Position numbers and translations under genes: made by a program. From positions 62,001 to 126,000 of the forward strand of contig NZ_FNZR01000011.1 in assembly GCF_900109365.1 (NCBI RefSeq): 64,000 nucleotides of DNA. The letters run 5' to 3'. The DNA is from Parapedobacter koreensis. Its GTDB lineage: Bacteria > Bacteroidota > Bacteroidia > Sphingobacteriales > Sphingobacteriaceae. Below, piece by piece: positions 33,810-52,016 of this stretch; the first letter of the stretch is position 1, and each line of letters begins with the position of its first letter. The notes below the pieces were generated by a model. That model had not been told where the DNA came from and searched no databases. It saw only the letters and a list, made by a program, of their open reading frames with translations.

Positions 33810-33871
33810 CTTCTTGCATTTCTATGTTGCTTGTTATGCCTGTGGTCTATAACAAGGTTTATAATTTAATG

Positions 33872-33889
33872 TAAATTTGGTAAAATTTA
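33872..33889 (+). promoter_or_regulatory. -7 element inside a palindrome before the second AraC gene
   Basis: TAAATTTG (33872-33879) fits the TAnnTTTG -7 pattern and lies 23 bases before the GTG start of the plus-strand AraC gene. It is half of a perfect inverted repeat TAAATTT-GGTA-AAATTTA (33872-33889), which could serve as an operator for either of the two divergent regulators. No TTG at -33 is present. Confidence 0.4.
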
Positions 33890-33902
33890 TCAGCAAAACA
33901 AA

Positions 33903-35623: not shown

Positions 35624-35650
35624 ATAATTGATTGGTTGCTAAGTTAATCA

Positions 35651-37306: not shown

Positions 37307-37310
37307 TTTT

Positions 37311-38819
37311 TTATAAAGATTGTTTCGTCAGTTCACCGTCTAACTTTCTCCAAATGCCCAGTCTGTTGCCATCCCGCAACTCAACGGGGAGTAGCCTATC
37401 GGGATAATTCTGGTAGCTTACCGGCCGGGTAAACCGGTAGATGGCCTGCGTCCCTACCGAAGTGCTCCGGGCATCTGTAGTGGCGGGGAAAGGCCCCCCG
37501 TGCACCATCGCGTGGCCTACTTCCACCCCGGTTGGCGCGCCATTGATGATCAATCTGCCAGCTTTACCTTCCAATGCCTGGAATAGTAGCCCAAATGAAT
37601 CAATATCCACATCGGTGCACCAGACACTGCTCGTTAATTGCCCATCAAGCACTTTTGCTATTTCCAGTAATTGTGCGGTATCTTCTGCGATCACATGGAT
37701 GGATGCCGGGCCGAAATACTCTTCCCGCAAAGCATCGTTTCGAAGAAAATCCGCTCCGCGTACCCGGAATGCAACCGGGACGGCTGCATCGGATGGCAAC
37801 CCTTCCGTTTTTCCCTCACCGAGTACCTGAATCCCGTTGATGGATTTTAGCCGCTCCACGCCTGCTGAATAGGCCGTATAGATACCCGGTGTCAGCATGT
37901 CGTGGCAGGTCTGCTCAGCCAGTTGACTACCATAAGTTGAGAGAAAATGCTCCGTTTCGGGCGACTGTAACATGACCATCAATCCGGGATTGGTACAAAA
38001 CTGTCCAGCACCCAAGGTATTGGAGGCTGCCAAAGCTATGGCCGTTGCTTCCGCATGGTGTTTCAACTGGTCGGGCAACAGAAAAACGGGATTGATACTT
38101 CCCATCTCGGCATATACTGGAATGGGTACCGGCCTCCTTGCCGCCGCATCGTACAGGGCCTTGCCTCCCGAAAAAGAGCCCGTAAAGGCTACCGCTGCTA
38201 TGGAAGGATGGGTGACCACTTGTAGACCTATCTCCCGCGCGACCATCAGCGAGGCGAATACACCCTGAGGCATGTCCGTTTGGCTTGCCGCCCGTTCGAT
38301 ACAACCGCTCACCAGTTGGGATGTTTGCGGGTGCCCCTCGTGTACTTTATACAATACGGGACACCCAGCGGCCAAAGCCGATATTGTATCACCTCCAGCC
38401 ACTGAAAACGCAAACGGGAAATTGCTCGCACCATATACACATACTGGGCCGAGAGGCAGCTGCATTTGTCGGATATCCGGCTTTGGAGCGGGTATACGCT
38501 GTGGGTTTGCTGTATCGATAATGGCATTTACCCATGATCCCTCCTCCAACACCTCGGCAAATAAGTTAATCTGGTTGATGGTTCGGTCGATCTCCCCGTG
38601 GAGGCGCCCTTCGGGAAGGTGGGTCTCTTGGTGAGCGATTTCAACGAGATTTAACCGAATAGTGGCTATTTCTCGGGCGATCTGCCGCAGAAAATCGATG
38701 CGCCGCGAGGCTGGATATCGCCGATAGTGTTCGAATGCTACTTCGGCGCTTTCCATATAAGTGATGACCTCCGGCCACTCCAATAAGGTATGGGATTCTT
38801 TTAATTTTCCATTCATCAT
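37311..38819 (-). CDS. Aldehyde dehydrogenase, 2-oxoglutarate semialdehyde type
   Basis: A 502-residue NADP-type aldehyde dehydrogenase. It shows PLGPVCVYGASNFPFAFSVAGGD, represented by ASNFPFAFSVAGGD, the glycine motif VAFTGSFSGGKALYDAA, the catalytic glutamate in YAEMGSINPVFLLP and the catalytic cysteine in LGAGQFCTNPGLMV. The ASNFPFAFS and QFCTNPG motifs are typical of the 2,5-dioxovalerate (2-oxoglutarate semialdehyde) dehydrogenase branch. It would complete the oxidative pentose route by making 2-oxoglutarate. It is the first gene of a three-gene minus-strand unit (dehydrogenase, UxaA-type dehydratase, FAH-family dehydratase). No consensus promoter is seen in the 134 bases upstream. Confidence 0.88.
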   Translation of the reverse strand: MMNGKLKESHTLLEWPEVITYMESAEVAFEHYRRYPASRRIDFLRQIAREIATIRLNLVEIAHQETHLPEGRLHGEIDRTINQINLFAEVLEEGSWVNAIIDTANPQRIPAPKPDIRQMQLPLGPVCVYGASNFPFAFSVAGGDTISALAAGCPVLYKVHEGHPQTSQLVSGCIERAASQTDMPQGVFASLMVAREIGLQVVTHPSIAAVAFTGSFSGGKALYDAAARRPVPIPVYAEMGSINPVFLLPDQLKHHAEATAIALAASNTLGAGQFCTNPGLMVMLQSPETEHFLSTYGSQLAEQTCHDMLTPGIYTAYSAGVERLKSINGIQVLGEGKTEGLPSDAAVPVAFRVRGADFLRNDALREEYFGPASIHVIAEDTAQLLEIAKVLDGQLTSSVWCTDVDIDSFGLLFQALEGKAGRLIINGAPTGVEVGHAMVHGGPFPATTDARSTSVGTQAIYRFTRPVSYQNYPDRLLPVELRDGNRLGIWRKLDGELTKQSL

Positions 38820-38882
38820 AATTGCTTGTCTATATTATGGGCCAACAAATTGGTTTATATACGCTCAAAAAGATGAACACAA

Positions 38883-38928
38883 AATAAGCTAACAATTTAA
38901 TGGTTTCCCACCAATTTGTTAGCTTATT
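38883..38928 (-). terminator. Long hairpin after the ribose-type operon
   Basis: AATAAGCTAACAA (38883-38895) and TTGTTAGCTTATT (38916-38928) form a perfect 13-bp inverted repeat around a 20-base loop, whose ATGG and CCA can pair further. It lies just beyond the nucleoside hydrolase stop and before the aldehyde dehydrogenase gene. There is no long T-run. A smaller hairpin (AACCGAC/GTCGGTT, 38947-38965) encloses the stop codon of the nucleoside hydrolase gene. Confidence 0.5.
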
Positions 38929-38953
38929 CTGATACTATATTGGCTTAACCGAC

Positions 38954-39979
38954 TTATTGTCGGTTTGAGGCTTGCAGCATTAATGCCTCAATGACCTTCC
39001 CAATGTAGGCATACGGATATTTATGACTGATGAAATAGTGACCGGCGTCCACTGTGGGGTCCCATGTATTCGATCCATCTTCACTGACCGTAAATTTCCC
39101 GGGTCCGTTGACATAGAAGTAATCTTCAGGACTGCGCACGGCGCACAAAACGGCCGTTTGATCCCATGAATTACGATTCGTTTCCCCTTCCTTGGTGTAT
39201 GTCATAAGGTTATACGCATAGGCCTTGCTTACTGGGTTATTGCCTCCCTGCCTTGCCACTGCGCTTCCTGTAAAAATCTTGGCACCGATTTCGAAGCCGC
39301 TGAACAATATTGGCCTGGGCCACTTGCTGATCACATTTACGGAAGCCTGGGCATGTTTGTTGACGTTAAATTCACTGCCCTCGGGGAATGCACCAGCCAT
39401 GGCAACCAGTTGCTTAACCTTTGCCTTGACGAGATCAACACCGTTCAGCTCCGAATACGCGTCAGGCTGCGAGTCCAACAGCGCACTGATATTCGAAAGG
39501 AATCCCACTGTTACAATGGTCACGCTGTTGGCTGGCTGGTTGGCCAGCGAACGGCGGTATACCTCCACGGCGCTGGGATAGCTTCTTGCACGCACATCGG
39601 GCGCGAAGGTATTAATCAGCGTATCATTCCAACCATTTTCCGCAGTGAAGTCCGGTGCGCCCCGCATGGCAGTGCCAACCGGTAGGCTATCCCGACCAAA
39701 ATAACGATTGAACAGCGCTATCGTGGGCGCAATGGATGGATGTGCGTCACTGGCAACCGTAGCCAATACGTCACATTCACCACTATCGGCAAGGGCGTGC
39801 AACACCGCAATGGCACCAACGTCATCGTAATCAGGCCCCATGTCGGTATCAAAAATGATTTTAGGTTTACGCTCATGCCCAGCATCCGTAGCCTGTGGCC
39901 CGGTACCGGACCTACAGCTTATACACCAAATGCAGCCTATCGAAGCAATCACAGAGAAACTGGCAGAAATACGCATCAT
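38954..39979 (-). CDS. Nucleoside hydrolase, lipoprotein
   Basis: A 341-residue inosine-uridine preferring nucleoside hydrolase family protein. The N-terminus is a lipoprotein signal (FSVIASIGCIWCISC with cysteine at the lipobox), so it acts in the envelope rather than the cytoplasm. The calcium-binding ribose site is IIFDTDMGPDYDDVGAI (DTDxGxDxDD), and the C-terminal SWDQTAVLCAVRSPEDYF holds the second aspartate. It cleaves the N-glycosidic bond of ribonucleosides to base and ribose, although some bacterial members prefer other ribosides. It is the last gene of the ribokinase-SusCD-ARH operon, 18 bases after ARH 2. This is the expected supplier of free ribose to the permease and ribokinase. 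Confidence 0.92.
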   Translation of the reverse strand: MMRISASFSVIASIGCIWCISCRSGTGPQATDAGHERKPKIIFDTDMGPDYDDVGAIAVLHALADSGECDVLATVASDAHPSIAPTIALFNRYFGRDSLPVGTAMRGAPDFTAENGWNDTLINTFAPDVRARSYPSAVEVYRRSLANQPANSVTIVTVGFLSNISALLDSQPDAYSELNGVDLVKAKVKQLVAMAGAFPEGSEFNVNKHAQASVNVISKWPRPILFSGFEIGAKIFTGSAVARQGGNNPVSKAYAYNLMTYTKEGETNRNSWDQTAVLCAVRSPEDYFYVNGPGKFTVSEDGSNTWDPTVDAGHYFISHKYPYAYIGKVIEALMLQASNRQ

Positions 39980-39997
39980 CCGTTTATATTAATACAA

Positions 39998-41560
39998 CTA
40001 CTCTACATGATGGCTGTTTATCCCATCCACCGGTTTGTCGGAATACACTACATAGTTATTTGCCCATATCCTGTAGCCATCACGAGGGTTCGCCACCACC
40101 AGCTTTACGGCGTGTTTGCCCTTGGGCAGTTGGTATTTCCAAAAAATCTCGTGCCGACGCTTGGTGTAATCCGTAGACATGGTGAAAGTTTCCACTTTTT
40201 CACCATCGATATGCAAATCTACCGAAAAAACATAGTCGGTCAATTCTTCCCCATCCTTATGGGCAGATCCTAACAATACGACGCCCGTGCCCTCAAAGTC
40301 AAACGCATATTCCGAAGTAATGTTTTGGTTGACCGTCACCCGTTCAACGGGATATAAGCCTTCAAAACTTTTCTCATACCGCACGGGTTCGGGTTGTTGG
40401 ATGGCAATTGTTGCCGTGCTATCGCCCACTTCTCCTCCATTGCGCTTGATCATTTCAAGCGCATGCCGATATCCGGTTTCATAGACCTTGTTTAAGGACA
40501 TCGTCGTATATTTGAAGTTCATGTCTTCCACATCGGCCAGTCCCATCTTCCAATATGACGGGATACTATCGTAGCCAATCATCGTGCCCAATATTCCACC
40601 CGCACTCGATGGATTACAATCGGAGTCCTGCCCTGCGCGCGTGGCAATTTCCAGGGTTTTGGTATAATCACCATTGCCATAGAGTAGGCCCAGTACAATA
40701 TAGGCTGCATTGATTTTCGCATCGATATTGAACGTGGCAAACACGCCTTCCGGGCAGCCCACTTCTTCCGACCATTTCTTTTGTATCTCAAACCAAGTCC
40801 GCTTCCAATCATCCGGATACTGCTCATGCCAGTTAATCACGTCGGCGATACATTTGTAAAAGTCGCTTTCTGCGGGAACGGTACGGAGGGCTTCTTTCAC
40901 CACATAGTGGACGTCATCCGACACAAATGCGAGCGAATACATGGCACCCACGTACACCCCGCCATACCAGCCATCACCATAGTTCATGATATGGCCAATT
41001 TTATCACTGATAGCGGATGCCGAGTTGGGCATTCCGGGATTCATCAATCCGGCAAAATCAGATTCTATCTGGTAATCAATATCATCGGCATGGGGATTAT
41101 TCAGCCAATGCCCGGACTCGGGGGCCTTGATACCATTGAGAATATTGTAGCGTGCGGCTTGGTTGGCATGCCATAGGACATATTCCGCGTTGGCAAAGGC
41201 GTTGGCAAAGGAATCTACGGGTGCATCCAGTCCCGCGCGTTCAAACACATCTACGAAGGTGAGATCCATATAAATGTCATCATACAAACCCGGCTCTCCT
41301 TCCATCCATTTCCGGATGTAGCCATCGTACCAGGGGATGGTTTGGTAATCCTGGATGAATGTCCCGTTGTAGCGAAATTCGGTAGGCCCACCGAAAGTCA
41401 CCCCTATCGTCTGGCCGGCCCAGCCACCTTTGATTTTATCTTTTAGTTCTGCAAGCGATAGCACTTTTGAGCCCGATGTTGGGGCGTCTTGCGATGGCTG
41501 ACTACATGAGCCCAGCCAAGAACATGCCAGCACTCCGAAGGTTAACGTTAGTCTGTTCAT
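39998..41560 (-). CDS. Exported ADP-ribosylglycohydrolase-fold lipoprotein (ARH 2)
   Basis: A 520-residue lipoprotein (LTFGVLACSWLGSC, lipobox LGSC). The ARH fold is seen in KIKGGWAGQTIGVTFGGPTEF; the first metal motif reads EPGLYDDIYMDLTFVDVF, so the usual DDT is replaced by DDIYMD, while the second motif RAGQDSDCNPSSAGGILG is intact. From about residue 385 there is a separate beta-rich C-terminal domain (YAFDFEGTGVVLLG, EIFWKYQLPKGKHAVKLVV), which looks like a sugar-binding or jelly-roll module. The variant metal motif marks it as a subfamily distinct from ARH 1 and ARH 3. It lies between ARH 3 (53 bases upstream) and the nucleoside hydrolase (18 bases downstream). Confidence 0.85.
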   Translation of the reverse strand: MNRLTLTFGVLACSWLGSCSQPSQDAPTSGSKVLSLAELKDKIKGGWAGQTIGVTFGGPTEFRYNGTFIQDYQTIPWYDGYIRKWMEGEPGLYDDIYMDLTFVDVFERAGLDAPVDSFANAFANAEYVLWHANQAARYNILNGIKAPESGHWLNNPHADDIDYQIESDFAGLMNPGMPNSASAISDKIGHIMNYGDGWYGGVYVGAMYSLAFVSDDVHYVVKEALRTVPAESDFYKCIADVINWHEQYPDDWKRTWFEIQKKWSEEVGCPEGVFATFNIDAKINAAYIVLGLLYGNGDYTKTLEIATRAGQDSDCNPSSAGGILGTMIGYDSIPSYWKMGLADVEDMNFKYTTMSLNKVYETGYRHALEMIKRNGGEVGDSTATIAIQQPEPVRYEKSFEGLYPVERVTVNQNITSEYAFDFEGTGVVLLGSAHKDGEELTDYVFSVDLHIDGEKVETFTMSTDYTKRRHEIFWKYQLPKGKHAVKLVVANPRDGYRIWANNYVVYSDKPVDGINSHHVE

Positions 41561-41613
41561 AATTTTTCAGTTTTATTTAAAACGGTGTTTACTATCATTT
41601 GATTATCCTGGTA

Positions 41614-43659
41614 CTAGTTGGGTATCGGCCCGTAAATTTCCAGCTCACTGATGGATGTAAAATAGGCCGGCTTCCCATACCAGTGTTCCCCGCCCCCGGC
41701 ATTTCCGATTATCCGGATTGCCGTAGCTTCCAGCGGCTCGAAATTAAGGGTATACATCACAAAATGCGGTTTATCATAAGGCGCATTCCCCTCAACCAAG
41801 GTAGGTGAAATCTTCATGTTTTTCACACGCTTCCAGCCACCTTTCCCATCTTTATATTCTACGGAAAGGCTTGTAAACCAACCTGCAATTTCCTCCATTG
41901 CCCCGGTATAGAAAACTACCGATCCGACTTTAATCGGCTCGCGCCATTGATAGCCATAATAATCGACCTTGGGCTCATGCGTGCCATCAATGCTGTAATA
42001 AGTAGAACCTTCGCCAGCCACGTTTCCATCCCGGATAGCCTCTACGTCATTGGCATACAATGAATAGGGTACGGTGAGCCATAGGGAATCACGCGCAGCG
42101 ATATCCAATCTGCTTACATTACTCAATACGCGCGTAGCTTGGAGTGCCAGGTTGGGGCCGGTCACCCGCACCTTCAATTCCCGCGTGGCCTGTTGCGTGC
42201 CCCGCTGCGCTGCGATAAGAAGCCGATAATTTCCGGGCTGGCTGGTCGTTCCAACGATATTGCCCTTGTCAAACTGAAGTCCTTCGGGGAGCGACCCATC
42301 CGCGACCCGCCATTGCACGTCATCGCCATCTCCCACGATGGCCATGCGGTATGACACTGGCTTACCGACTTCAATCCGTAGATCAGGCCCCTCCGGCAGT
42401 TCGAGGGGTGCTTGAAACGACGCAGCACGTTTTATCACGTAGTAGTCTTTTCCATCCTCCGTGATTTTTTTGCCCCCATTCATCAGGATGATGCGTTCCC
42501 CTTGCATGGCTGTCCGAAGCGCCATATCATGGATACCCGCATCCGGCAAGTCATACCGGCTGACGTTGATATACCGGTCATTGAACGGTTGCTCCCAACC
42601 CGTTATCGGGAATAATAATTCATCCGGAATCGCTTCCATTCCGTTGATAAGCGCGATCAGTCCGCACATCGTGGCGGTTTGATTGTCGGCATCAAACCCC
42701 ATTACCACCGCCATATCCAATGTTTTCTGGAAATCCCCTTGCCCGTACAGCAAAGCGAGTATGCCACATGCACCATTTAGGTTGGCATTCCATATCGTCT
42801 TGGTGTCGGCAGGTTCATGCTGGTAATACCGCTCCGCCATCGTTGCCCGTGCCGCCTTCCAATCCGTTGGGTGTGCCTTGTACAGTGCTTTCATATCTTC
42901 CACGGTTTGCGCAAACCGGCTACCTGCCGGAAGGGCCGCCGTTCCGATATCAATAAGGCGGTAAATGTCGGATTCAAAGAAAGCTGCGGCAAACATGGCT
43001 CCATAGTGGATGGTGGGTTCCACCCCCCAATCATCACTGGTAATACGGGCGGCCCATTCCGACTTTCCTGCGGCATAATGCACCATGCCGGGTGCCGTGA
43101 TCGCCCAAATTTCATTGACCAATTGCGGGTCGATTTGAAACCAGTGCGGATTATATTGTTTATAGCCCGTCAATGGCGGACTGTATCCCACATGCATCAG
43201 CCCGAGTGCGGCCCGATTAGCCAGCCATACGCGCTCGCGGATGTGATGTTTCCACGCTCCAGCCAATTGCGCATAGGTAGGCTCCGCGCCATATTTTTCC
43301 ATTTGGAGCAGGTACATATATTCCACATCCGTGTCGTCGTCTGAAAACGCGCCGTCTACGTCCCGGAGCTGCTGCAGCCTGGGGCCGTAGCCAAAAGGGA
43401 ACGTTTCCGGACCCGGCTCATCGATATAGGCATTTTCGTGGGGCAAACCATAAGTATTGCCTACGATCTGTCCCAACCACGATGCATACACCTTCTGCTG
43501 GTAGGTTTCCACGGCAATTTTCAGGTATGGGCCGTTATCCTGCGCCTTCAATGTCCTTGCTCCGCCTGCCGGCCCAAGCAGCACGGCAAGCAGGCACCAC
43601 GCCGCCCATATCCGACGACGCCATAACTTGTCTTTATCCGTTGCGTTAATAATCATCAT
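41614..43659 (-). CDS. Exported ADP-ribosylglycohydrolase-fold protein with Ig and discoidin-like domains (ARH 3)
   Basis: A 681-residue protein with a signal peptide (AAWCLLAVLLGPAGGART). The ARH domain has WLGQIVGNTYGLPHENAYI, the metal motifs GAFSDDDTDVEYMYLL and VMGFDADNQTATMCG, and ends near residue 400. It shares GLPHE and DDDTD with ARH 1, so these two are close relatives. A putative Ig domain follows (LPEGLQFDKGNIVGTTSQPG), then a C-terminal region with discoidin/F5-8-like features (VGSVVFYTGAMEEIAGWF, AIRIIGNAGGGEHW), often carbohydrate-binding. Such an appended binding module supports action on a large or surface-bound substrate. The start overlaps the SusD stop by 14 bases. Confidence 0.85.
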   Translation of the reverse strand: MMIINATDKDKLWRRRIWAAWCLLAVLLGPAGGARTLKAQDNGPYLKIAVETYQQKVYASWLGQIVGNTYGLPHENAYIDEPGPETFPFGYGPRLQQLRDVDGAFSDDDTDVEYMYLLQMEKYGAEPTYAQLAGAWKHHIRERVWLANRAALGLMHVGYSPPLTGYKQYNPHWFQIDPQLVNEIWAITAPGMVHYAAGKSEWAARITSDDWGVEPTIHYGAMFAAAFFESDIYRLIDIGTAALPAGSRFAQTVEDMKALYKAHPTDWKAARATMAERYYQHEPADTKTIWNANLNGACGILALLYGQGDFQKTLDMAVVMGFDADNQTATMCGLIALINGMEAIPDELLFPITGWEQPFNDRYINVSRYDLPDAGIHDMALRTAMQGERIILMNGGKKITEDGKDYYVIKRAASFQAPLELPEGPDLRIEVGKPVSYRMAIVGDGDDVQWRVADGSLPEGLQFDKGNIVGTTSQPGNYRLLIAAQRGTQQATRELKVRVTGPNLALQATRVLSNVSRLDIAARDSLWLTVPYSLYANDVEAIRDGNVAGEGSTYYSIDGTHEPKVDYYGYQWREPIKVGSVVFYTGAMEEIAGWFTSLSVEYKDGKGGWKRVKNMKISPTLVEGNAPYDKPHFVMYTLNFEPLEATAIRIIGNAGGGEHWYGKPAYFTSISELEIYGPIPN

Positions 43660-45247
43660 TCTGTGTCAGATTGGGATTCTTGTCGATTTCTTCCTGCGGG
43701 ATCGGCAAGAAATAAAATGCATCCCGCCAAGACCGGGGTTCCATTACCTCTTCGGTATATTGAAAGCCGCCACCGCCCTGCCGTTCGATCGTCATTTTAT
43801 GCACCGGCACATTGAGTAGTTGGGGAGCTGTTTTCCACCTGCGCACATCAAAGAAGTACTGCTCTTCAAAAGCCAGTTCGACCTTCCGTTCATTCATATA
43901 TCGTGCACGTAAGGCTTGCCCCGATTCATCATTGGGTATTTCGGGCATGTCCGATCGTTCCCGCACCCGGTTAATATAGGCACGCGCTTCGTCCTCATGG
44001 CCCAAATTCAGTTGTGCTTCGGCATAGTTGAGCAGGACTTCTGCATAACGGATCACTATCCAGTTGGCACTCCACCGGTTATCGCCGTAGCTCAGGGGAT
44101 TCTCCTCGTTAAGGAACTTTTTGAGGTAGTAGCCGGTCATGGTGAGCGACGTCGCATATTCGTCATAGGCCCCTGGTCCATTGGCTCCGTCTACGAAGGT
44201 TTCCAGCGTCCTACCCCGCCATGATGCGCCGTTATATAAGATAGATGCATAAAACCGCGGATCCCGCCCCACATAAGGAGCCGCCAAATCATAGCCGGAT
44301 TCCGGATCTCCGATGGCCCTGCCATTGGCCATTTCGTAACTGTTGACCAGCTCCTGCGTGGGCCTGGTCATACCATACGCACCATTGAACCCCTGCGGAT
44401 TGGTCATGTAATCCCAGTCGTTTGTCCGGTAAGGATAAGCAAACTGGATGTCGAATATCACCTCCTCGTTATTATCATTCAGGAAGAGCCCATTGTAATC
44501 GGGATATAGTGCGTATTGTTCTGAACTGATGACCGCCCATGCGGCATCTGCGGCAAGTTGCCATTTGGCCAAGTCATTCCCTTCATTGTGGAGCGGGCTC
44601 GCCGCATAAAGCAATGCCCGTGATTTCAGTGCTAAAGCAGCGCCAGATGTCGCTTTGCCAACCTCGGTGGGCGACCATTCCGACGGCAGCAGTCCGGCGG
44701 CGGCATCAAGATCCGCAACGATAAAATCCACGCATTCTTCGTACGAATTTCGGGGCACAAATAAGTCTTCATCCAATGACTGAGCGGATGAAATGATGGG
44801 TACGCCCCCGAAGAAATTAACCAGCTCCGAATAAAACAGGGCCCGGAGGAAGTAGGCCTGCCCCAGCAATCCGTCATTTGTCTCCGCATCGCCCTGCCCG
44901 GTATTGTATTGCGCGATGAATTGATTCAAACTCCGTATCGGATAATACAGATCCCAAGCATCCGCAAACGGGGCATTGCCGGGTGTGACCTCGCCGGTAT
45001 TGAACGGCTGGGCCGGATGCCAGTTGTGCCCTCCTTCCCCGATTTCGGTTGCACAGTCCAATCCACGCCCCAGACCACCCGGGATATTCAGGTAGACGTC
45101 ATTCAGATACAATTGCGCTAAATTAGCATCTTCCCATACCAGTTCTTGGTCGATAACGTCCAAGGGGTTTTTATTCAAGACATCTTTCTCACATGAAAAG
45201 AAGAAACCTGCCACAAGCGCCGTCAATAATTTGATATAACCTTTCAT
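43646..45247 (-). CDS. SusD/RagB-family substrate-binding lipoprotein (2)
   Basis: I choose ATG 45247 (533 residues), since it gives a clean lipoprotein signal (LLTALVAGFFFSC); the frame extends 7 codons further only through a TTG. The SusD pattern is present: LGQAYFLRALFYSELVNFFGG, then GAALALKSRALLYAASPLHN (given in shorter pieces such as ALKSRALLYAASPLHN), VIRYAEVLLNYAEAQLNLG, and RKVELAFEEQYFFDVRRWK, with the final FYFLPIPQEEIDKNPNL. It captures the nutrient at the cell surface with SusC 2, whose gene ends 21 bases upstream. It overlaps the ARH 3 gene by 14 bases. Confidence 0.93.
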   Translation of the reverse strand: MKGYIKLLTALVAGFFFSCEKDVLNKNPLDVIDQELVWEDANLAQLYLNDVYLNIPGGLGRGLDCATEIGEGGHNWHPAQPFNTGEVTPGNAPFADAWDLYYPIRSLNQFIAQYNTGQGDAETNDGLLGQAYFLRALFYSELVNFFGGVPIISSAQSLDEDLFVPRNSYEECVDFIVADLDAAAGLLPSEWSPTEVGKATSGAALALKSRALLYAASPLHNEGNDLAKWQLAADAAWAVISSEQYALYPDYNGLFLNDNNEEVIFDIQFAYPYRTNDWDYMTNPQGFNGAYGMTRPTQELVNSYEMANGRAIGDPESGYDLAAPYVGRDPRFYASILYNGASWRGRTLETFVDGANGPGAYDEYATSLTMTGYYLKKFLNEENPLSYGDNRWSANWIVIRYAEVLLNYAEAQLNLGHEDEARAYINRVRERSDMPEIPNDESGQALRARYMNERKVELAFEEQYFFDVRRWKTAPQLLNVPVHKMTIERQGGGGFQYTEEVMEPRSWRDAFYFLPIPQEEIDKNPNLTQNDDY

Positions 45248-45268
45248 GATTGTTTGTTTTTTAGCCAA

Positions 45269-48200
45269 CTAAAATTCAACATTAAGCCCTACCATCATCG
45301 TTTTCTGAATCGGGTAAAAATAAGGTGCACCCGATGGGGCTTCGGGGTCGAATATCTTCACCTTGCTCCAAGTGAGCAGGTTTGTCCCCGTTAGGTATAT
45401 GCGCAGCCGTTTGAGCACATTTTCCGGAATGAGGCTCTTTGGAAACGTGTAGCCCAGTTCGGCATTTTTCAGCCGCAGATAGGCGGCATCTTGCAACCAG
45501 AATGAGGACGTCTCTTGTTTGTAATTGTATTGATCGAGGGAAAGCCTTGGATAGGAGGCATTGGGATTTTCCGGGGTCCACCGGTCAAGGTGATGTTCCA
45601 TCGCACTGCTTCCATAGATAAACTCAAGCGTCGCCTCGCCTTGGAAATTGACATTATACCCACCTGCACCCTGCAGCAATACATTCAGGTCAAATCCTTT
45701 ATAGCTTCCACCCAGCGTGATCCCGAATATGCTTTCGGGAATGTCAGATTTTCCTATCGCACTGATATCGTTTGAATTGATGACATTATCGCCGTTCAAA
45801 TCTTTATACCGGATGTCTCCGAGGCGGGGTTCTACACCCACAATCTTCGGGGAATTGTCGATTTCTTCCTGGGTCTGGTAAAGCCCTTCGCTCACGTAAC
45901 CGAAAAATTGCCCCATGGGTTTGCCCGTACGCTGCCGATAAGCGGGTATGTTGGCCGGTTCATCGATGAAGGCAATTTTGTTCCGGGTAAATGTGTAGTT
46001 GGCATTCACAAAATAGTTGAATGCACCGATGGTATGGTCATGCCGCAACTCCACCTCGACACCATGGTTTCTTACCCGTGCGATATTCTCCACCGGCAAG
46101 GATGCTCCAAAGGTCACGGGGACAGATTGGTTGCGCATGGCCAGGATATTAGCACGTTGCTCAAAAAACACATCGGTACGGAATCCGAAAAATCCACCTT
46201 TAAATGAGGCATCCACCCCAAAATTGGTTTTACGTGCCCGCTCCCAGGTAACATACGGGTTGGCCAATTCACCGATGTACAACGACTGTACGGGTGTGGG
46301 CGACGATCCGCCAAAAACATAGTCGCTACCGTAATAAACGGGCTGCCGATATAAAAAGCGCCTGTCGCTTACCAAGTCGTTGCCCACCTCTCCATATGAA
46401 CCCCGTATCTTGAGCATATCGATATAATCGATGCGTTTGAGAAACGCCTCATTGGCCATGTTCCATCCCAACGAAAATCCCGGGAAAAAACCATATCTCC
46501 GGGAAGGTGCAAAATTCTCGGATCCGTTATAGCCAAAGCTAGCCTCTACCAGGTATCTCTGATCGTAATTGTAGTTGATACGCCCCACCACACCTTCGCG
46601 TCCGCTTTCCGAGGCTCCCCCATAATTGTTGATGTTGGTCCGTGGGCCGGCGAACAGCTGGTCGAGCGCTTTGGATGGAAAATCGGATCGGTAGCCACTG
46701 AGGGAATTGCTGTAGCTCGCAAATTGCGTATAGAGCGCCAGTATGCCCAATTCATGCTTGCCGAATGTCCGGTTGTAATTGATATGTGTTTCAAACGTCC
46801 GGTTGTTGTACTGATCAAACCCTTCGTCCAAACTGGGCAGGGGCACCCCTATCTCTTCTAGCCCATCGCCCGTGGGAATGAAGGTTTGGTAGGGTGTATA
46901 CCAGTTTTTGTAATTGTTAAAACCAAAATCATAGGCATATATCACTTTTGCCGATAGCCCCTTGACCCAAAAATCAAACTTCTGATCAATGGTAAATGAA
47001 GTTTGGATATTCCTTGCACCATTTTTCCGATAGCCAGCCTCCGTCAGATCGGCTACCGGGTTGGTACCCCACAACGATGCCCACGAACCGTCTTCATTTT
47101 TAATGGGAAATGCGTTTGGTGGCAGATAGGTCGTCGTGCTGAATATCCCCCCGTCTTCCCTGGATGTCACCACGCCGGGATGCCGCCAGTCCCCTAATTC
47201 CCCGCCCAATCCAACGGTCAGTTTCGTGGTATTGCTGAGATCGGCGTTAATATTGGCCCTGAAATTATATTTGGAAAAATTCACGCTTCTATACATCCCC
47301 TGCTGATCAAAATACCCCAGCAGCAAAAAGTAATTCAGATGCTCCGAACCGCCCGTAGAAGACAGCGAATGCCTTTGCTGCAATGCGTCTGGTTTGATCA
47401 CTGCATTATACCAATCGACATCAGGATGCGTATATGGGCTTGAATGGTCGCGGTATTTCTGCAGATCTTCCGCTGAGTAAGGTGGTGTCGCGTCGGGATT
47501 GTCATTCAACGCCGCTTCGTTATATAATCGGGCGAAGTCATAGGAATTCAGGTATTTGGGCACCTGCGAAGGATTCTGGATTCCCGCATATCCATTGTAC
47601 GTAAATGAAGGCTTGCCTGTTTTTCCCCGTTTGGTAGTCACCAGTATAACCCCATTGGCGCCGCGAATACCATAAACCGCGGTCGCAGAAGCATCCTTCA
47701 GTACGCTCAACGATTCGATTTCGTTGGGATCGATTTGCGAAAAATCACGGGGGATACCATCTACAAGAATCAACGGAGCATTATTATTCAATGTTGATCT
47801 TCCCCGGATTAGGAGTTCGTCCGGCGAATCGTCACCCGGCTCTGCATTCCGTTGCACGGCGACGATCCCTGGCAATCGCCCAACCAACGCATTAGCGAGG
47901 TTAGGTGCGTTGCTCCTGACGATTTCGTCGCCTTTCACAGCAGAGACAGATCCCGTTACGTCTTGTTTGGCCTGGGTTCCATAACCGATTACCACGACTT
48001 CCTCCAAGGCCGAATCGGAAGCGACCATGGCGATATCTAACATTTTTTTACCTCCTAGAGCCACCTCTTGGCTGTTATATCCGATATAACGGACCAACAA
48101 CGAAACATCAAACGAACGTACCGTAAGTGTATAGACACCTTCCTCATTGGTGGTCGTGCTGGCATCTTCACCCACGACCGTAATGGTTGCCCCTACCAGC

Positions 48201-48319
48201 GGCTCGCCGCTGGCTGCATCCGTCACCTTGCCGGTCACTGTCTCCTGTGCCACGGTACGTTGGCAAAATAATAGGCAACAGACCAGACCAAGCAAAGTGT
48301 ATTTCATACTTTTACTCAT
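45269..48319 (-). CDS. SusC/RagA-family TonB-dependent outer-membrane transporter (2)
   Basis: A 1016-residue SusC protein with signal peptide (YTLLGLVCCLLFCQRTVAQ), a carboxypeptidase-like domain (TVTGKVTDAASGEPLVGATI), a TonB box-like EVVVIGYGTQAKQDVTGSV, and the plug motif ATAVYGIRGANGVILVTTKRGK (in part). The barrel ends with MVGLNVEF, the typical terminal aromatic. It imports the substrate of the ribokinase-type operon together with SusD 2. The gene lies 46 bases after the permease and in the same orientation, so transcription probably starts upstream of the ribokinase gene. Confidence 0.94.
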   Translation of the reverse strand: MSKSMKYTLLGLVCCLLFCQRTVAQETVTGKVTDAASGEPLVGATITVVGEDASTTTNEEGVYTLTVRSFDVSLLVRYIGYNSQEVALGGKKMLDIAMVASDSALEEVVVIGYGTQAKQDVTGSVSAVKGDEIVRSNAPNLANALVGRLPGIVAVQRNAEPGDDSPDELLIRGRSTLNNNAPLILVDGIPRDFSQIDPNEIESLSVLKDASATAVYGIRGANGVILVTTKRGKTGKPSFTYNGYAGIQNPSQVPKYLNSYDFARLYNEAALNDNPDATPPYSAEDLQKYRDHSSPYTHPDVDWYNAVIKPDALQQRHSLSSTGGSEHLNYFLLLGYFDQQGMYRSVNFSKYNFRANINADLSNTTKLTVGLGGELGDWRHPGVVTSREDGGIFSTTTYLPPNAFPIKNEDGSWASLWGTNPVADLTEAGYRKNGARNIQTSFTIDQKFDFWVKGLSAKVIYAYDFGFNNYKNWYTPYQTFIPTGDGLEEIGVPLPSLDEGFDQYNNRTFETHINYNRTFGKHELGILALYTQFASYSNSLSGYRSDFPSKALDQLFAGPRTNINNYGGASESGREGVVGRINYNYDQRYLVEASFGYNGSENFAPSRRYGFFPGFSLGWNMANEAFLKRIDYIDMLKIRGSYGEVGNDLVSDRRFLYRQPVYYGSDYVFGGSSPTPVQSLYIGELANPYVTWERARKTNFGVDASFKGGFFGFRTDVFFEQRANILAMRNQSVPVTFGASLPVENIARVRNHGVEVELRHDHTIGAFNYFVNANYTFTRNKIAFIDEPANIPAYRQRTGKPMGQFFGYVSEGLYQTQEEIDNSPKIVGVEPRLGDIRYKDLNGDNVINSNDISAIGKSDIPESIFGITLGGSYKGFDLNVLLQGAGGYNVNFQGEATLEFIYGSSAMEHHLDRWTPENPNASYPRLSLDQYNYKQETSSFWLQDAAYLRLKNAELGYTFPKSLIPENVLKRLRIYLTGTNLLTWSKVKIFDPEAPSGAPYFYPIQKTMMVGLNVEF

Positions 48320-48365
48320 AACAATTGGTTTTTTATTGGTTTATAATACCTTGTACAGGCGCTCG

Positions 48366-49370
48366 TTATCCACCAGCGGCAATCACCAGCCCCAGTCCAA
48401 CGACAAACAATACGAACATCGCACTCACAAGCGCATTGACCGTCTTTGATCCGCCCCTAAATTCTTTCCAGATCAATACGCCCCACAGTGCGGCCACCAA
48501 TGTGGCCCCCTGCCCAAGCCCATACGATATGGCCGGCCCGGCTTTGCCTGCGGCAATGAGGTTGAAGAGGTTGCCTACCCCCCAGATACCGCCCCCCAGG
48601 ATGCCCACCACGTGCAGGCCAAACCGTCCTTTGAAATATTCACTGTAACTACTGGGACTCCCCTCAAGCGGCCTGCGCAACAGGATGGTATTAAACAGCA
48701 AGTTGCTCACCACAATGCCGCCTGCAAACACCACAAATGCGGTATAAGGTGTCATCTTTCCGGCAGCAGGAGACACGAAGTTTTCCAAATCCATGCCTGC
48801 GGCGATGAATGGATAAAAGGTAGACATCAACACGCCTGCTATAACGGATACAACTATCCACTTGCCCACGCCTTTTTTGCCGGTACTGCCCGAATGCTTC
48901 TGGTAGGCAACAGCGTTGAGAACAATCGCCACGGTCACCAACCCTACACCAAGGAAAAGCAATACTGGATCACCCTTGCTGAGCATCAGGTAATTGATGA
49001 GCACGCCAATGACCAGTGCCAGGCCGATTCCCACGGGAAATGCCACGGCCATACCCGCGCCAGCAATGGCTGCGGTAAGGAGGATATTGGCCAAGTTGAA
49101 CACCACACCGCCGATAAATGCGCTCCGTATGTTGCTTCCTTCTGCCTGACCCAAATCAGCGACGAATGATCGGCCGGATTCACCGATGCTTCCCATGGTA
49201 AATGCCCCCACAAGTGCCAGTAGAAAAATCCCCAGTACATAGTCCCAATAGAACAGCTCAAAGCGCCATTCCCGTTGCACCAGCTTTTGCGTATTGGCCC
49301 ATGAACCCCAGCAAAGCATCGTGATGATGCAAAAAAGGACTGCCAAGCCATAATTTTCTACGATAAACAT
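48366..49370 (-). CDS. Inner-membrane sugar permease, GRP/RhaT-like DMT family
   Basis: A 334-residue integral membrane protein with about ten hydrophobic segments. The opening YGLAVLFCIITMLCWGSWANTQ and the charged pair near it, followed by WDYVLGIFLLALVGAFTMG, fit the glucose/ribose porter (GRP) and rhamnose transporter branch of the drug/metabolite superfamily. The C-terminal half has SYGLGQGATLVAALWGVLIWKE. Placed between ribokinase and SusC, it most plausibly moves free ribose or an intact riboside across the inner membrane, as the predicted permease of Bacteroides rus loci does. 36 bases separate it from the ribokinase gene. Confidence 0.82.
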   Translation of the reverse strand: MFIVENYGLAVLFCIITMLCWGSWANTQKLVQREWRFELFYWDYVLGIFLLALVGAFTMGSIGESGRSFVADLGQAEGSNIRSAFIGGVVFNLANILLTAAIAGAGMAVAFPVGIGLALVIGVLINYLMLSKGDPVLLFLGVGLVTVAIVLNAVAYQKHSGSTGKKGVGKWIVVSVIAGVLMSTFYPFIAAGMDLENFVSPAAGKMTPYTAFVVFAGGIVVSNLLFNTILLRRPLEGSPSSYSEYFKGRFGLHVVGILGGGIWGVGNLFNLIAAGKAGPAISYGLGQGATLVAALWGVLIWKEFRGGSKTVNALVSAMFVLFVVGLGLVIAAGG

Positions 49371-49406
49371 AATTTTTCCGGTTTTAATTGGTTAATATAA
49401 GCTATA

Positions 49407-50324
49407 CTACTTCACGCTGCTGAGCAGCACTTCATTGCGAAAGGGAATGGACGACTGCGCGCCCATACGCGTCACCGCAATCGATGCCGCCCGGCAAGCA
49501 AAGGCGATGGCGTCTGTCAGCGTCTTGCCTTCAGCTACGGCCACAGCTAATGCCCCATTGAATACATCCCCTGCCGCTGTGGAATCCACGGTTTCCACAG
49601 CGGGAGCCGGAATGTGATAAAATACGCCATCCTCCAACAAGGCAGCACCACGATCGCCCAGCGTAATGATAACATGCTTCACGCCCTGGGCATGGATGCT
49701 TTCTGCGGCCTGCCTTGCATCCGGAATATCGGTAATGCGTATGCCCGAGAGCATTTCCGCTTCGTTTACATTGGGTGTGATGATATCCACCATATGGAAT
49801 ACATTCGGCACAAGCGCGTTGGCAGGCGCTGGATTGAGGATGACCTGCATGCCCCTTGCCCGTGCATGGCGGGCGGCGAATTCAACCGTACGCATAGGAA
49901 TTTCCAACTGGATAAGCAGTATTTTCGCGTTTGCATAATTGTTCATCACCTTTTCTACGTCAGCAGGCTCCAAATGTGCGTTGGCTCCGGGGGCTACCAC
50001 AATGCTATTTTCCCCTTTTTCATCCACGGTAATGAGCGCAATGCCAGACGGGCTCTCCCGATCGGACAGAATACCGTCGGTATCTACACCTTCTTCATCA
50101 AATAACTGTGACGACTGCTTACCAAAGATGTCGTCACCAATTTTACCGATAAACGTCACATCTCCACCCAACCGCGCAACAGCTACTGCCTGGTTGGCCC
50201 CTTTGCCCCCCGGATTCATGAAAAACGAACCCCCCAAAACGGTTTCCCCGGGCTGGGGAATATGACTGGTTTTTACCACCATATCCATGTTCATACTGCC
50301 TACAACGATGATTTTATTATTCAT
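49407..50324 (-). CDS. rbsK: Ribokinase
   Basis: ATG 50324 is the start, giving a 305-residue PfkB-family kinase; only a TTG lies further upstream. Ribokinase hallmarks are IIVVGSMNMDMVVKTSHIP at the N-terminus, MNPGGKGANQAVAVARLGG (signature 1), and the anion hole/catalytic base region DSTAAGDVFNGALAVAVAEG (DSTAAGD in place of the more usual DTTGAGD). It phosphorylates D-ribose to ribose 5-phosphate in the cytoplasm. As the first gene of the operon followed by permease, SusC/D, two ARH proteins and a nucleoside hydrolase, it defines ribose as the expected end product. A -7-like element lies at 50363-50370. Confidence 0.93.
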   Translation of the reverse strand: MNNKIIVVGSMNMDMVVKTSHIPQPGETVLGGSFFMNPGGKGANQAVAVARLGGDVTFIGKIGDDIFGKQSSQLFDEEGVDTDGILSDRESPSGIALITVDEKGENSIVVAPGANAHLEPADVEKVMNNYANAKILLIQLEIPMRTVEFAARHARARGMQVILNPAPANALVPNVFHMVDIITPNVNEAEMLSGIRITDIPDARQAAESIHAQGVKHVIITLGDRGAALLEDGVFYHIPAPAVETVDSTAAGDVFNGALAVAVAEGKTLTDAIAFACRAASIAVTRMGAQSSIPFRNEVLLSSVK

Positions 50325-50362
50325 ATAACTGGTCAAAAAATGATAACGGGTTTATAATGGAT

Positions 50363-50370
50363 CAAAAATA
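50363..50370 (-). promoter_or_regulatory. -7 element for the ribokinase operon
   Basis: The minus strand reads TATTTTTG, an exact TAnnTTTG match, 38 bases before the ribokinase ATG. No TTG occurs at the -33 distance, which would suit a promoter that needs an activator. Confidence 0.4.
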
Positions 50371-50452
50371 AATCAGATAGCCATTAGAAAATAGCCATAT
50401 TTTCGTAATTTTATGAATCTTAACTTGATATTATACAACAACAATAAAACAC

Positions 50453-50503
50453 AAAAATCTTATTTTCAAATATTTATATCATATAAATTCACATAAGATT
50501 TTT
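50453..50503. promoter_or_regulatory. Nested palindrome upstream of the divergent regulator gene
   Basis: Outer arms AAAAATCTTAT (50453-50463) and ATAAGATTTTT (50493-50503) are perfectly inverted. Between them a second near-palindrome ATTTATAT-C-ATATAAAT occurs. The element ends 28 bases before the plus-strand start at 50532 and lies in the only intergenic space between the ribokinase operon and that gene. It is a good operator candidate. Confidence 0.45.
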
Positions 50504-50531
50504 CCCATTATTTCAATTAAGCAGCTAAAAA

Positions 50532-52016
50532 ATGCTCGTCTTCGAATTAGAGAAACTCATCAAATCGCTCTCGGCAACGGAGAGAAAACTTTTCCATCTC
50601 CACAGCAGCAAATTACAAGGACCAAAAGATTACGTGCTTTTGTTTGATTTGGCTACGGATAAGAAGGCCGGACGCAACAAGACGTGGGAACAACGCTTTA
50701 AAGAAAAATACCCGAATAAATTGTTTGAAAATGCTGCCAATTACCTTTATAAAGTGCTCACGGACGTATTAGTACAAATACGCATTGAACAGGACACATG
50801 GTATACACAATACCAGAGCTTGATGAAAGCGCGGCTCTGCTTCGAACGTTCCATTCCCAATAGGGCTCATAAGGAACTACAAAAGACACTTAAACTCGCC
50901 GCTGAAAGCCAAAACCATTCCGTAGCTTATCAAGCCGCCCGTATGGAGCTTACCGCATTGGCAGACATCGGCTTTCCCAGCTTCAATGAGCAGCAATTGG
51001 TGGATAAACAGATGAAAGCCAAGCATACACTGCAGTCGCTTCGCCAACTTCATGAACATTATTCCCTCTATGAATTATTGAGCCACCGCCTTACAAAAGG
51101 AGTGCTCCACAGCAATGGCAAACGCGACAAGCGGATAAATGACCTCATCTTGAGCGAGCTCAGCTTGACGACGCGGGGCAGCCAATACCAATTCGAGCCT
51201 CAAAAGCTTCATTTACTATTCCAGTCCTTCTTTTTTATCCATACCGGTGAATACCGCTCGGCACTACGGATATTCGACGAACTCAACACATTCATTGAAT
51301 CCAATGAATCGATGTGGAATTACCCGCCTTATGATTACCTCTCCGCACTGGACGGCATTTTGGATAGTCTGCGAGGCATTGGCTATTATAGGGAAATGGC
51401 GCATTTTATTGACAAAATCGTTGCGCTATCCAAACGAACATATCCCGACCATTTCCGTAGTTTAGCAGGACTTACTGCGTTGGCTTACCGTTTGAGCATG
51501 TACCTGGGAACCGGTGATGTCCATGAGGCTATGCAATTGCTGGACAGCTCCAAACATGAAAAGCAGCAGACTTCCATCACCGACAGCCATGAAAAACAAC
51601 TGGAATACCTTTATTTCGAAGGCTTGGCATATTTTCTTTCGCAGCAATGGCATGATGCCAATAGGTGCATCAATCACTTTTTCACCTTCGGCAAACAAAA
51701 TTCCCAGCTTTCCGTATACCGCGCAGGAAGGTTGCTGCATATCCTCCTTGGCTATGAACAAGACGATATGGCATATCTTGAATATGAAATCCGCTCCTAC
51801 AAAAGGGCTTTCAGCAAGTTAGGTAAGGCCTTTAAAATTGAAAAATTGGTATTCAACACCATCGCAGCCGATCCCAAACGCCGGGGGAATGCGTGGAAAG
51901 CGGCGGCACGACAAAAGGTAGCCATTAAACTTAGCGAAATCAGATCCGATAAGCGTGAGATGCAATTGCTGAAATTCTTTGATTATGGCAAATGGGTGCT
52001 CAGCAAATACACCTGA
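50532..52016 (+). CDS. Helical-repeat protein, probable regulator of the ribose operon (RusR-like)
   Basis: A 494-residue cytoplasmic protein without signal peptide or membrane segment. I recognise no standard DNA-binding domain. The first 70 residues (MLVFELEKLIKSLSATERKLF, then YPNKLFENAANYLYKVLTDVL) are helical, and the rest resembles TPR-like paired helices (ARLCFERSIPNRAHKELQKTL, AMQLLDSSKHEKQQ, LYFEGLAYFLSQQWHDANRC). It ends in a basic segment (RRGNAWKAAARQKVAIKL). It is divergent from the ribokinase-SusCD operon, with 207 bases between the start codons. As I recall, the Bacteroides rus locus also has a dedicated regulator, RusR, with no familiar domain, next to the ribokinase genes; this protein fits that place. 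It could be unrelated to regulation. Confidence 0.55.
   Translation: MLVFELEKLIKSLSATERKLFHLHSSKLQGPKDYVLLFDLATDKKAGRNKTWEQRFKEKYPNKLFENAANYLYKVLTDVLVQIRIEQDTWYTQYQSLMKARLCFERSIPNRAHKELQKTLKLAAESQNHSVAYQAARMELTALADIGFPSFNEQQLVDKQMKAKHTLQSLRQLHEHYSLYELLSHRLTKGVLHSNGKRDKRINDLILSELSLTTRGSQYQFEPQKLHLLFQSFFFIHTGEYRSALRIFDELNTFIESNESMWNYPPYDYLSALDGILDSLRGIGYYREMAHFIDKIVALSKRTYPDHFRSLAGLTALAYRLSMYLGTGDVHEAMQLLDSSKHEKQQTSITDSHEKQLEYLYFEGLAYFLSQQWHDANRCINHFFTFGKQNSQLSVYRAGRLLHILLGYEQDDMAYLEYEIRSYKRAFSKLGKAFKIEKLVFNTIAADPKRRGNAWKAAARQKVAIKLSEIRSDKREMQLLKFFDYGKWVLSKYT

What the first reader, a model, noticed from the sequence alone, without database searches (positions are those of the whole stretch)
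38954..52016. Ribose/nucleoside scavenging (rus-like) locus with two added ARH-fold enzymes
Seen: ribokinase - permease - SusC - SusD - ARH - ARH - nucleoside hydrolase in one orientation with short gaps or overlaps, and a divergent regulator-like gene. Known: the Bacteroides thetaiotaomicron rus locus, as I remember it, has regulator, ribokinases, permease, SusC/D and nucleoside hydrolase in the same order. Inference: this is a version in which exported ARH-fold proteins extend the range to substrates such as ADP-ribose, NAD-type compounds or O-linked ribosides.
Basis: partly seen in the sequence, partly recalled or inferred. Interest (0 to 1): 0.8.

Follow-up and report, generated by a model that had tools for sequence, protein, structure and literature searches.

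The report
Ribose-scavenging operon with ADP-ribosylglycohydrolase-like enzymes
This is a ribose-scavenging gene cluster of a Parapedobacter bacterium in which two apparently exported enzymes of the ADP-ribosylhydrolase fold probably cut ribose off some larger compound; enzymes of this kind recur in such clusters in many Bacteroidota, but what they cut is still unknown.

Summary
In detail: a RusR-family gene diverges from ribokinase-permease-SusC-SusD-ARH-ARH-nucleoside hydrolase, gaps -14 to +53 nt, strong hairpin after the last gene. The 'regulator-like' gene matches NCBI's BT2802-family (RusR) model at E 3.8e-128, below its cut-off; this is a rus-type locus of a Parapedobacter. ARH genes are no oddity there: orthologues of the second (ARHB) occur in 36 of 80 RusR-linked loci, 29 of 37 copies directly beside ribokinase or permease. 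The first (ARHA) is rarer; its ARHB partners fall in three ARHB lineages. Both keep the family's acidic motif residues; the ARHB model matches ARH3/DraG. I favour periplasmic ribosidases for O- or alpha-ribosides. Against me: four ARHB-type genes in other Parapedobacter and three of nine in a phylum sample lie away from ribokinase, ARHA kin also sit in glucan loci, and the closest SusD relatives read are not in ribose loci. The 2020 rus paper (not held) may, as I recall, already describe such variants. Substrate unproven.

The parts
50532..52016 (+). RusR-family (BT2802 family) gene, 494 aa, predicted all-helical repeat superhelix, no DNA-binding domain recognised
   Evidence: NF058569 E 3.8e-128, 428.6 bits, cut-off 550; AlphaFold2 mean pLDDT 89.9, 25 helices; best PDB match MalT domain III, E 7.3e-4, the only one under 0.001
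50337..50531 (.). Divergent intergenic region RusR/ribokinase; block like TAATTTTATGAATTATAA shared with Parapedobacter relatives; an 11-nt inverted repeat AAAAATCTTAT that they do not share
   Evidence: comparison of window with five Parapedobacter loci
49407..50336 (-). Ribokinase
   Evidence: TIGR02152 370.7 bits over cut-off 299.65; PRK11142 358.2 over 341
48366..49370 (-). Inner-membrane permease of the ureide permease / GRP sugar transporter kind (RusT-like)
   Evidence: PF07168 93.6 bits, PF06800 33 bits; relative present in 61 of 80 RusR loci
45269..48319 (-). SusC-type TonB-dependent outer-membrane transporter
   Evidence: TIGR04056 980 bits
43646..45268 (-). SusD-type outer-membrane lipoprotein
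   Evidence: PF07980 211.2 bits; best match in the other genomes of a 395-genome sample 365.5 bits, 42% identical
41614..43659 (-). ARHA: ARH-fold enzyme with signal-like N-terminus and Ig-like and F5/8C-like C-terminal part
   Evidence: PF03747 90.1 bits, PF05345 25.1 bits (cut-off 24), PF00754 23.2 bits (under its cut-off 28.2); E75, D107-D109, D323, D325 invariant in 12
39998..41560 (-). ARHB: ARH-fold enzyme with lipobox-like LGSC and a C-terminal beta-rich domain; the recurrent rus ARH
   Evidence: PF03747 132.8 bits; E61, D94, D95, D312, D314 invariant in 35; model pLDDT 91.4; Foldseek to ARH3, DraG and others
38954..39979 (-). Nucleoside hydrolase with signal-like N-terminus and variant aspartate motif DTDMGPDYDD
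   Evidence: PF01156 60.7 bits; D.D.GPD[YF]DD in 23 of 29 relatives
38820..38953 (-). Stretch with a long hairpin, probable transcription end of the operon
   Evidence: MFE -42.7 kcal/mol, z -6.47; not listed by the simple terminator scan

Best explanation
The locus is a rus-type ribose scavenging operon. SusC/D bring a ribose-containing compound through the outer membrane. In the periplasm the nucleoside hydrolase frees ribose from nucleosides, and ARHB, helped by ARHA, frees ribose from another class of ribosides by the metal-assisted glycosidic hydrolysis typical of the ARH fold; O-linked or alpha-linked ribosides, perhaps acylated ones, fit best. Free ribose enters through the permease and becomes ribose 5-phosphate through the ribokinase. 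The RusR-type repeat protein controls the operon. Shown: gene content, order, families, conserved motif residues, recurrence. Inferred: export and side of the membrane, ribosidase activity, substrate, regulation.
For: RusR-family hit and ribokinase equivalog. ARHB orthologues in 36 of 80 RusR-linked loci, NH in 23, both in 12, ARHB without NH in 24 (lower bounds, as flanks stop at 10 kb: P. defluvii shows none in L059 but has NH and ARHB further on, L198). 29 of 37 ARHB copies lie directly beside ribokinase or permease on the same strand. In a sample of 395 Bacteroidota genomes 9 have an ARHB orthologue (57-65% identity, or the query itself) and in 6 of the 9 it is in one gene run with ribokinase. 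In the runs RK-ARHB-permease of L134 and L166, and of L096 with one unscanned gene more, ARHB is the only recognised hydrolase. Glu and four Asp invariant, placed on motifs of DraG, MJ1187 and 6dre by profile alignment. ARHB model is an ARH fold. ARHA-ARHB-ARHB operons were read in four Bacteroidales; in the two scanned by Pfam the next two genes are PF00756 esterases. The ARHB partners of ARHA fall in three places of the ARHB tree that supported branches keep apart (quick tree, SH-aLRT only).
Against: No activity is known here; ARH-fold enzymes of known activity (recalled: ARH1, ARH3, DraG) act on ADP-ribosyl bonds. 3 of 9 ARHB orthologues in the phylum sample have no ribokinase in the 20 kb read. 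Among ARHB-type genes of other Parapedobacter, those of L199, L201, L202 and L205 (633, 818, 861, 650 bits) stand away from RusR, ribokinase and permease. ARHA orthologues occur in genomes of another class, one directly beside a GH13/CBM48 gene, and ARHC in a sugar-acid cluster, so the fold is not bound to ribose. SusD kinship is not with ribose loci. 30 of 80 RusR loci show neither NH nor ARH.
Confidence: 0.5

Rival explanations
1. The ARH proteins are true ADP-ribosyl hydrolases: they strip ADP-ribose from proteins or cleave NAD-type compounds outside the cytoplasm, and the ribose is recovered later.
For: PF03747 family and ARH3/DraG fold matches; invariant ARH acidic residues. A discussion passage in PMC11699363 suggests cooperation between a phage ADP-ribosyltransferase and ribose-utilization systems of B. 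stercoris through released nucleosides.
Against: The product would be ADP-ribose, yet Pfam recognises no pyrophosphatase, phosphodiesterase or phosphatase among the seven operon genes, and the runs RK-ARHB-permease of L134 and L166 have no other gene. Sequence kinship to solved ADP-ribosyl hydrolases is weak (ARHB profile: best E 4.1e-5, over 52 positions). Esterases accompany ARHs in the two Bacteroidales loci scanned. One rus locus, L064, does have an Exo_endo_phos gene after ARHB.
Confidence: 0.15
2. The ARH proteins are glycosidases for another sugar (for example a pentofuranoside or a sugar acid conjugate), and the link with ribose is loose.
For: An ARHA orthologue directly beside a GH13/CBM48 gene (L171) and another with GH77 nearby (L170); ARHC in a gluconate/galactonate-type cluster; four ARHB-type genes of other Parapedobacter away from ribokinase; rus-type loci elsewhere carry GH127, GH106, GH3, GH13 or GH38 enzymes; the closest SusD kin lie in non-rus loci.
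Against: ARHB stands beside ribokinase or permease in 29 of 37 copies of the RusR loci, also where nothing else is recognised, and in one gene run with ribokinase in 6 of 9 genomes sampled without regard to RusR.
Confidence: 0.23
3. The ARH proteins are binding proteins without catalysis.
For: Residues next to the metal motifs differ from those of classical ARHs: mostly Tyr or Phe before DD and Cys after the second motif in ARHB, Asn after it in ARHA.
Against: Glu and four Asp invariant in 35 ARHB and in 12 ARHA/ARHC-type sequences.
Confidence: 0.05

Closest known systems
Bacteroides thetaiotaomicron rus locus (RusR, BT2803-2809; Glowacki et al. 2020, cited in PMC12596196 and PMC11699363)
   Same: RusR-family gene (NF058569), ribokinase, SusC, SusD, nucleoside hydrolase, permease.
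   Different: Two ARH genes where PMC10434189 lists a DUF4969 protein; permease second rather than last in that list. B. theta proteins themselves were not aligned.
Bacteroidales RusR / RK-SusC-SusD-ARHA-ARHB-ARHB-gene-gene-permease loci (G450, G559, G416, G512)
   Same: ARHA then ARHB directly after SusD.
   Different: A second ARHB and two following genes (PF00756 esterases in the two loci scanned), permease last, no NH seen; SusC/D score higher against the window's other SusC/D pair than against this one.
Parapedobacter defluvii rus (L198) and P. pyrenivorans rus (L206)
   Same: RusR / RK-permease core; ARHB 1027, 922 and 810 bits; L198 also has NH (572 bits) beside ARHB.
   Different: Other SusC/D and other cargo, no ARHA; of 9 genomes of the genus only this one has an ARHA orthologue.
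ARH3 / ARH1 / DraG ADP-ribosylhydrolases
   Same: Fold and acidic motifs. The top Foldseek hit by E-value is a chain of the Orf2971-FtsHi complex (8xks_Q), then ARH3.
   Different: 10-16% identity in the 50 rows listed, extra C-terminal domains, signal-like N-terminus, in a sugar operon.
Inosine-uridine nucleoside hydrolases (RihA/B/C) and HopQ1
   Same: PF01156; weak sequence match to E. coli RihA structures.
   Different: Motif DTDMGPDYDD rather than DXDXXXDD; it contains the DXXXDXDD pattern described for HopQ1 (PMC3608555 passages).

Membership tests
rus ribose utilisation locus | Divergent RusR (BT2802-family) gene | tested here: met
   NF058569 E 3.8e-128, but 428.6 bits against a curated cut-off of 550; only 1 of 395 phylum genomes passes that cut-off
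rus ribose utilisation locus | Ribokinase | tested here: met
   TIGR02152 and PRK11142 over cut-off
rus ribose utilisation locus | RusT-type permease | tested here: inconclusive
   PF07168/PF06800 family; B. theta RusT not aligned
rus ribose utilisation locus | SusC/D kin to other rus SusC/D | tested here: not met
   ten regions with 12 of the 13 best SusD matches show no ribose genes; but SusC/D vary between rus loci of one genus, so it is doubtful that this defines rus
rus ribose utilisation locus | Nucleoside hydrolase | tested here: met
   PF01156 60.7 bits over 34.2
rus ribose utilisation locus | Induction by ribose, growth on ribose or nucleosides | not testable with these tools
   needs culture
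ARH/DraG family (PF03747) | ARH fold | tested here: met
   PF03747 over cut-off for ARHA and ARHB; ARHB model to ARH3/DraG prob 1.00. ARHA not modelled
ARH/DraG family (PF03747) | Catalytic Glu and two Asp metal motifs | tested here: met
   invariant in 35 and 12 sequences, aligned to solved ARHs; their catalytic role is recalled
ARH/DraG family (PF03747) | ADP-ribosyl hydrolase activity or ADP-ribose pocket | not testable with these tools
   no assay; pocket residues were not mapped
IU nucleoside hydrolases | N-terminal DXDXXXDD motif | tested here: not met
   DTDMGPDYDD in the window; D.D.GPD[YF]DD in 23 of 29 NH-labelled relatives

The most novel reading that the evidence does not exclude
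ARHB (with ARHA) founds a new glycosidase family on the ADP-ribosylhydrolase fold: an exported alpha-D-ribofuranosidase of Bacteroidota that frees ribose from O-linked, partly acylated ribosides, so that in one operon the nucleoside hydrolase handles beta-N-ribosides and the ARH pair handles alpha- or O-ribosides. If so, much of the uncharacterised ARH-fold repertoire in Bacteroidota sugar loci would be glycosidases and not part of ADP-ribosylation biology.
Probability: 0.3. Interest if true: 0.72.

Novelty: new variant of a known kind. Interest (0 to 1): 0.5.

Why it matters
ARH-fold proteins are read by default as ADP-ribosylation enzymes. Here one subfamily (ARHB) is tied to ribokinase, a sugar permease and RusR in loci from eight named families of Bacteroidota, in some as the only recognised hydrolase of the operon. 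That gives a direct prediction, release of free ribose, which one purified protein can test, and would tell which ribose compounds besides nucleosides these bacteria live on.

Tried and rejected
Rejected or led nowhere. Glowacki et al. 2020 (rus paper) is not held under its DOI or PMC id; I recall that it describes rus variants across Bacteroidetes, some with ADP-ribosylglycohydrolases, but saw nothing of it. Searches for a paper on ARHs in rus or SusC/D loci showed none in the rows listed; two searches listed 20 of 27 and 20 of 128 papers. In PMC10434189 the one ARH mention is next to a hemin locus. Single-sequence search of the PDB with ARHA or ARHB gave nothing; profiles gave weak matches. 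The 11-nt inverted repeat upstream of ribokinase is not shared with the five Parapedobacter relatives compared, so I do not call it an operator. Promoter and terminator scans are at chance level. The idea that ARHA-ARHB is a unique invention of this strain was dropped after the Bacteroidales loci. The idea that the operon runs on into the aldehyde dehydrogenase gene is disfavoured by the hairpin. ADP-ribose pocket residues were not mapped.

Limits of the counts. The 80 RusR loci are the best 80 of 92 found by patterns built from five RusR sequences that include the window's, so they lean to its kin; several are cut by contig ends and the rest end 10 kb from the match. Labels come from phmmer with the window's own proteins, so distant enzymes appear as unlabelled. 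Alignment A2 holds the window plus 34 of the 47 ARHB hits then in hand. The tree (quick method, SH-aLRT support only) holds 46 ARHB, 7 ARHA and ARHC, leaving out the two short or cut ARHB rows (L117, L176); ARHC has a very long branch and its place is unsure. L096/L174, L093/L036, L085/L037, L072/L038, L134/L039, L056/L206 and L059/L198 are pairs from the same genomes in two collections. In one search only the best three candidates per genome were scored; I read ten regions with 12 of the 13 best matches and not the one at G211:C2:205435. L101 (ARHA) ends too early upstream to tell whether ARHB is present and is not used in statements on pairing; L098 ends 341 nt after ARHB, so a further gene there cannot be excluded.

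Full report
What is there. The window is G000:C10:62001-126000 of a 5.55 Mb genome. Its RusR is 66-77% identical to those of five named Parapedobacter species, and eight other genomes of its genus are held, so I take it as a Parapedobacter. On the minus strand run ribokinase, permease, SusC, SusD, ARHA, ARHB and NH (coordinates in the parts list), with gaps of 36, 46, 0, -14, 53 and 18 nt. The 134 nt after NH fold into a long hairpin (z -6.47, none of 200 shuffles as stable), which suggests that the operon ends there, although the simple terminator scan did not list it. The divergent gene at 50532 matches NCBI's BT2802 family of ribose utilisation proteins (E 3.8e-128; 428.6 bits, curated cut-off 550). 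That cut-off is narrow: in 395 genomes of the phylum one passes it.

Is it rus? Ribokinase passes two curated equivalog models; NH, SusC, SusD and permease families are present. PMC12596196 (passages) gives the B. theta Rus PUL as BT2803-2809 under RusR, with RusT as proposed ribose transporter. PMC10434189 (table passage) lists that operon as ribokinase, TonB receptor, SusD, DUF4969 protein, nucleoside hydrolase, permease. So content agrees apart from the ARHs; the order differs if that list follows the genes. SusC/D are not specific kin of other rus SusC/D: the best SusD matches in the other genomes of a 395-genome sample are about 42% identical, and ten regions with 12 of the 13 best matches hold no RusR, ribokinase, permease, NH or ARH, while SusDs inside RusR loci score 268 bits or less. 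Within Parapedobacter the RusR/RK-permease core is constant and the rest differs.

How common are ARHs in rus loci? I annotated 80 RusR-linked loci with the window's proteins. ARHB (380 bits or more) is in 36 of 80, NH in 23, both in 12, NH without ARH in 11, ARHA in 2, other ARHs in 3; 30 have none of these. These are lower bounds, as loci stop 10 kb from RusR: P. defluvii counts as empty in L059 but has NH and ARHB further on (L198). Among neighbours scanned in loci without NH or ARH, Pfam finds GH127, GH38, GH13, GH106, GH3 and a sulfatase, so rus looks like a core with swappable hydrolases. Of 37 ARHB copies 29 lie directly beside ribokinase or permease on the same strand. Without regard to RusR, 9 of 395 Bacteroidota genomes carry an ARHB orthologue (57-65% identity, or the query itself); in 6 of 9 it shares a gene run with ribokinase and in 3 no ribokinase is in the 20 kb read. 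In L134 (Fibrella) and L166 the run is RK-ARHB-permease, in L096 (Parabacteroides chinchillae) the same with one unscanned gene more. There ARHB should be what yields ribose.

Counter-evidence from the genus. Other Parapedobacter hold further ARHB-type genes. P. composti has one after permease-SusC-SusD and an unlabelled gene (L200, 805 bits), but those of L199, L201, L202 and L205 (633, 818, 861, 650 bits) stand away from RusR, ribokinase and permease. So ARHB-type enzymes are not used in ribose operons alone.

The ARHA-ARHB pair. Four genomes of the order of Parabacteroides acidifaciens (Bacteroidales) have RusR / RK-SusC-SusD-ARHA-ARHB-ARHB-gene-gene-permease; in the two scanned the two genes are PF00756 esterases. 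Bacteroidia MS495-74 (L098) has ARHA between RusR and SusC and ARHB after ribokinase. On the ARHB tree the partners of ARHA fall in three places that supported branches keep apart (window, L098, L175/L177/L178). The six assessable rus loci with ARHA, the window included, all have ARHB. Of nine genomes of the genus only this one has an ARHA orthologue, so it was perhaps gained recently. I saw NH in none of the other loci with ARHA, though L098 and L101 are cut; the window has all three.

Active sites. In 35 ARHB sequences E61, D94, D95, D312 and D314 are invariant; in 11 ARHA-type sequences plus ARHC E75, D107-D109, D323 and D325 are. Profile alignments place E61/E75 on the Glu of the GDxxG...TE motif of DraG, MJ1187 or 6dre, and D312/D314 (D323/D325) on the GxDxD motif of DraG, 6dre, MJ1187 and ARH3; some of these stretches score near zero. 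That these are the catalytic Glu and metal ligands of ARH3 is recalled. The ARHB model (mean pLDDT 91.4) matches ARH-fold entries at probability 1.00 and 10-16% identity: after a chain of the Orf2971-FtsHi complex come ARH3, 6dre, DraG and Thermus ARH. Its C-terminal part is beta-rich. ARHA has an Ig-like and a weak F5/8C-like region. N-termini look like signal peptides; 26 of 45 ARHB have a lipobox-like Cys by my pattern; no predictor was run.

Mechanism. By their families the ribokinase and the permease act on free sugar, so the enzymes should yield ribose. An ADP-ribosyl hydrolase would yield ADP-ribose, which would then need further enzymes; Pfam recognises none in the operon. One other rus locus (L064) has an Exo_endo_phos gene after ARHB, which the rival could use. 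Esterases after ARHA-ARHB-ARHB point to acylated glycosides. I therefore favour ribosidases for O- or alpha-ribosides, with NH for nucleosides. NH has DTDMGPDYDD in place of the DXDXXXDD hallmark; 23 of 29 NH-labelled relatives in these loci share D.D.GPD[YF]DD. It contains DXXXDXDD, the variant that PMC3608555 reports for HopQ1 (passages). RusR is modelled as an all-helical repeat protein (pLDDT 89.9) whose best PDB match is MalT domain III (E 7.3e-4), with no DNA-binding domain recognised; how it regulates is open.

Verdict. A real rus-type locus with a combination of enzymes (ARHA, ARHB and NH together) that I saw in no other locus read, in a class of rus variants that is common. The listings of my paper searches show no paper on ARHs in rus loci, but the founding paper is not held and, as I recall it, treats such variants. 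The function of the ARHs is the open and testable point.

Noticed in passing
window 26448-27980 and 23520-38819: Third ARH-fold gene (ARHC, PF03747 91.8 bits) in a neighbouring SusC/D cluster with a gluconate 5-dehydrogenase-type SDR, galactonate-type MFS, IolO-like epimerase, two AraC regulators, FAH-family, galactarate dehydratase-type and aldehyde dehydrogenase genes. The same cluster is in P. indicus (L202/L203).
   Followed up: partly
L057, L198, L202 against window 34772-39979: NH and/or ARHB lie next to FAH, with or without aldehyde dehydrogenase and galactarate dehydratase-type genes, in the window, P. defluvii, P. indicus and P. soli; such genes over 60 bits were seen in 5 of the 108 sequences scanned (two of them overlapping), from these four genomes. 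Possible oxidative route for a released pentose.
   Followed up: partly
L044-L047, L050-L055: Weak RusR-family relatives stand beside genes of the leuA, leuC, ilvE or gltB families (names inferred from Pfam) in 10 of 16 fetched weak-RusR loci (L040-L055, chosen by me). RusR may belong to a wide Bacteroidota family of repeat-type regulators of amino-acid and sugar operons.
   Followed up: partly
L170, L171: ARHA orthologues (47% identical) in genomes of another class, in L171 directly beside a GH13/CBM48 gene, in L170 with a GH77 gene about 4 kb away.
   Followed up: no
L175-L178, L207-L210: Rus-type loci with three ARH genes in a row (ARHA-ARHB-ARHB) in four Bacteroidales genomes; the two following genes are PF00756 esterases in the two loci scanned.
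   Followed up: partly
L200: P. composti locus permease-SusC-SusD-unlabelled-ARHB (533, 614, 199, 805 bits), a second permease-ARHB association in the genus without RusR or ribokinase in the stretch read.
   Followed up: no
L165: Short RusR-family match with in-frame stops beside RK-ARHB in G249, probably a remnant.
   Followed up: no
window 50337-50531: Block like TAATTTTATGAATTATAA shared by the RusR/RK intergenic regions of the Parapedobacter loci compared (less so in L060), with similar strings in L061 and L062; possible operator.
   Followed up: no
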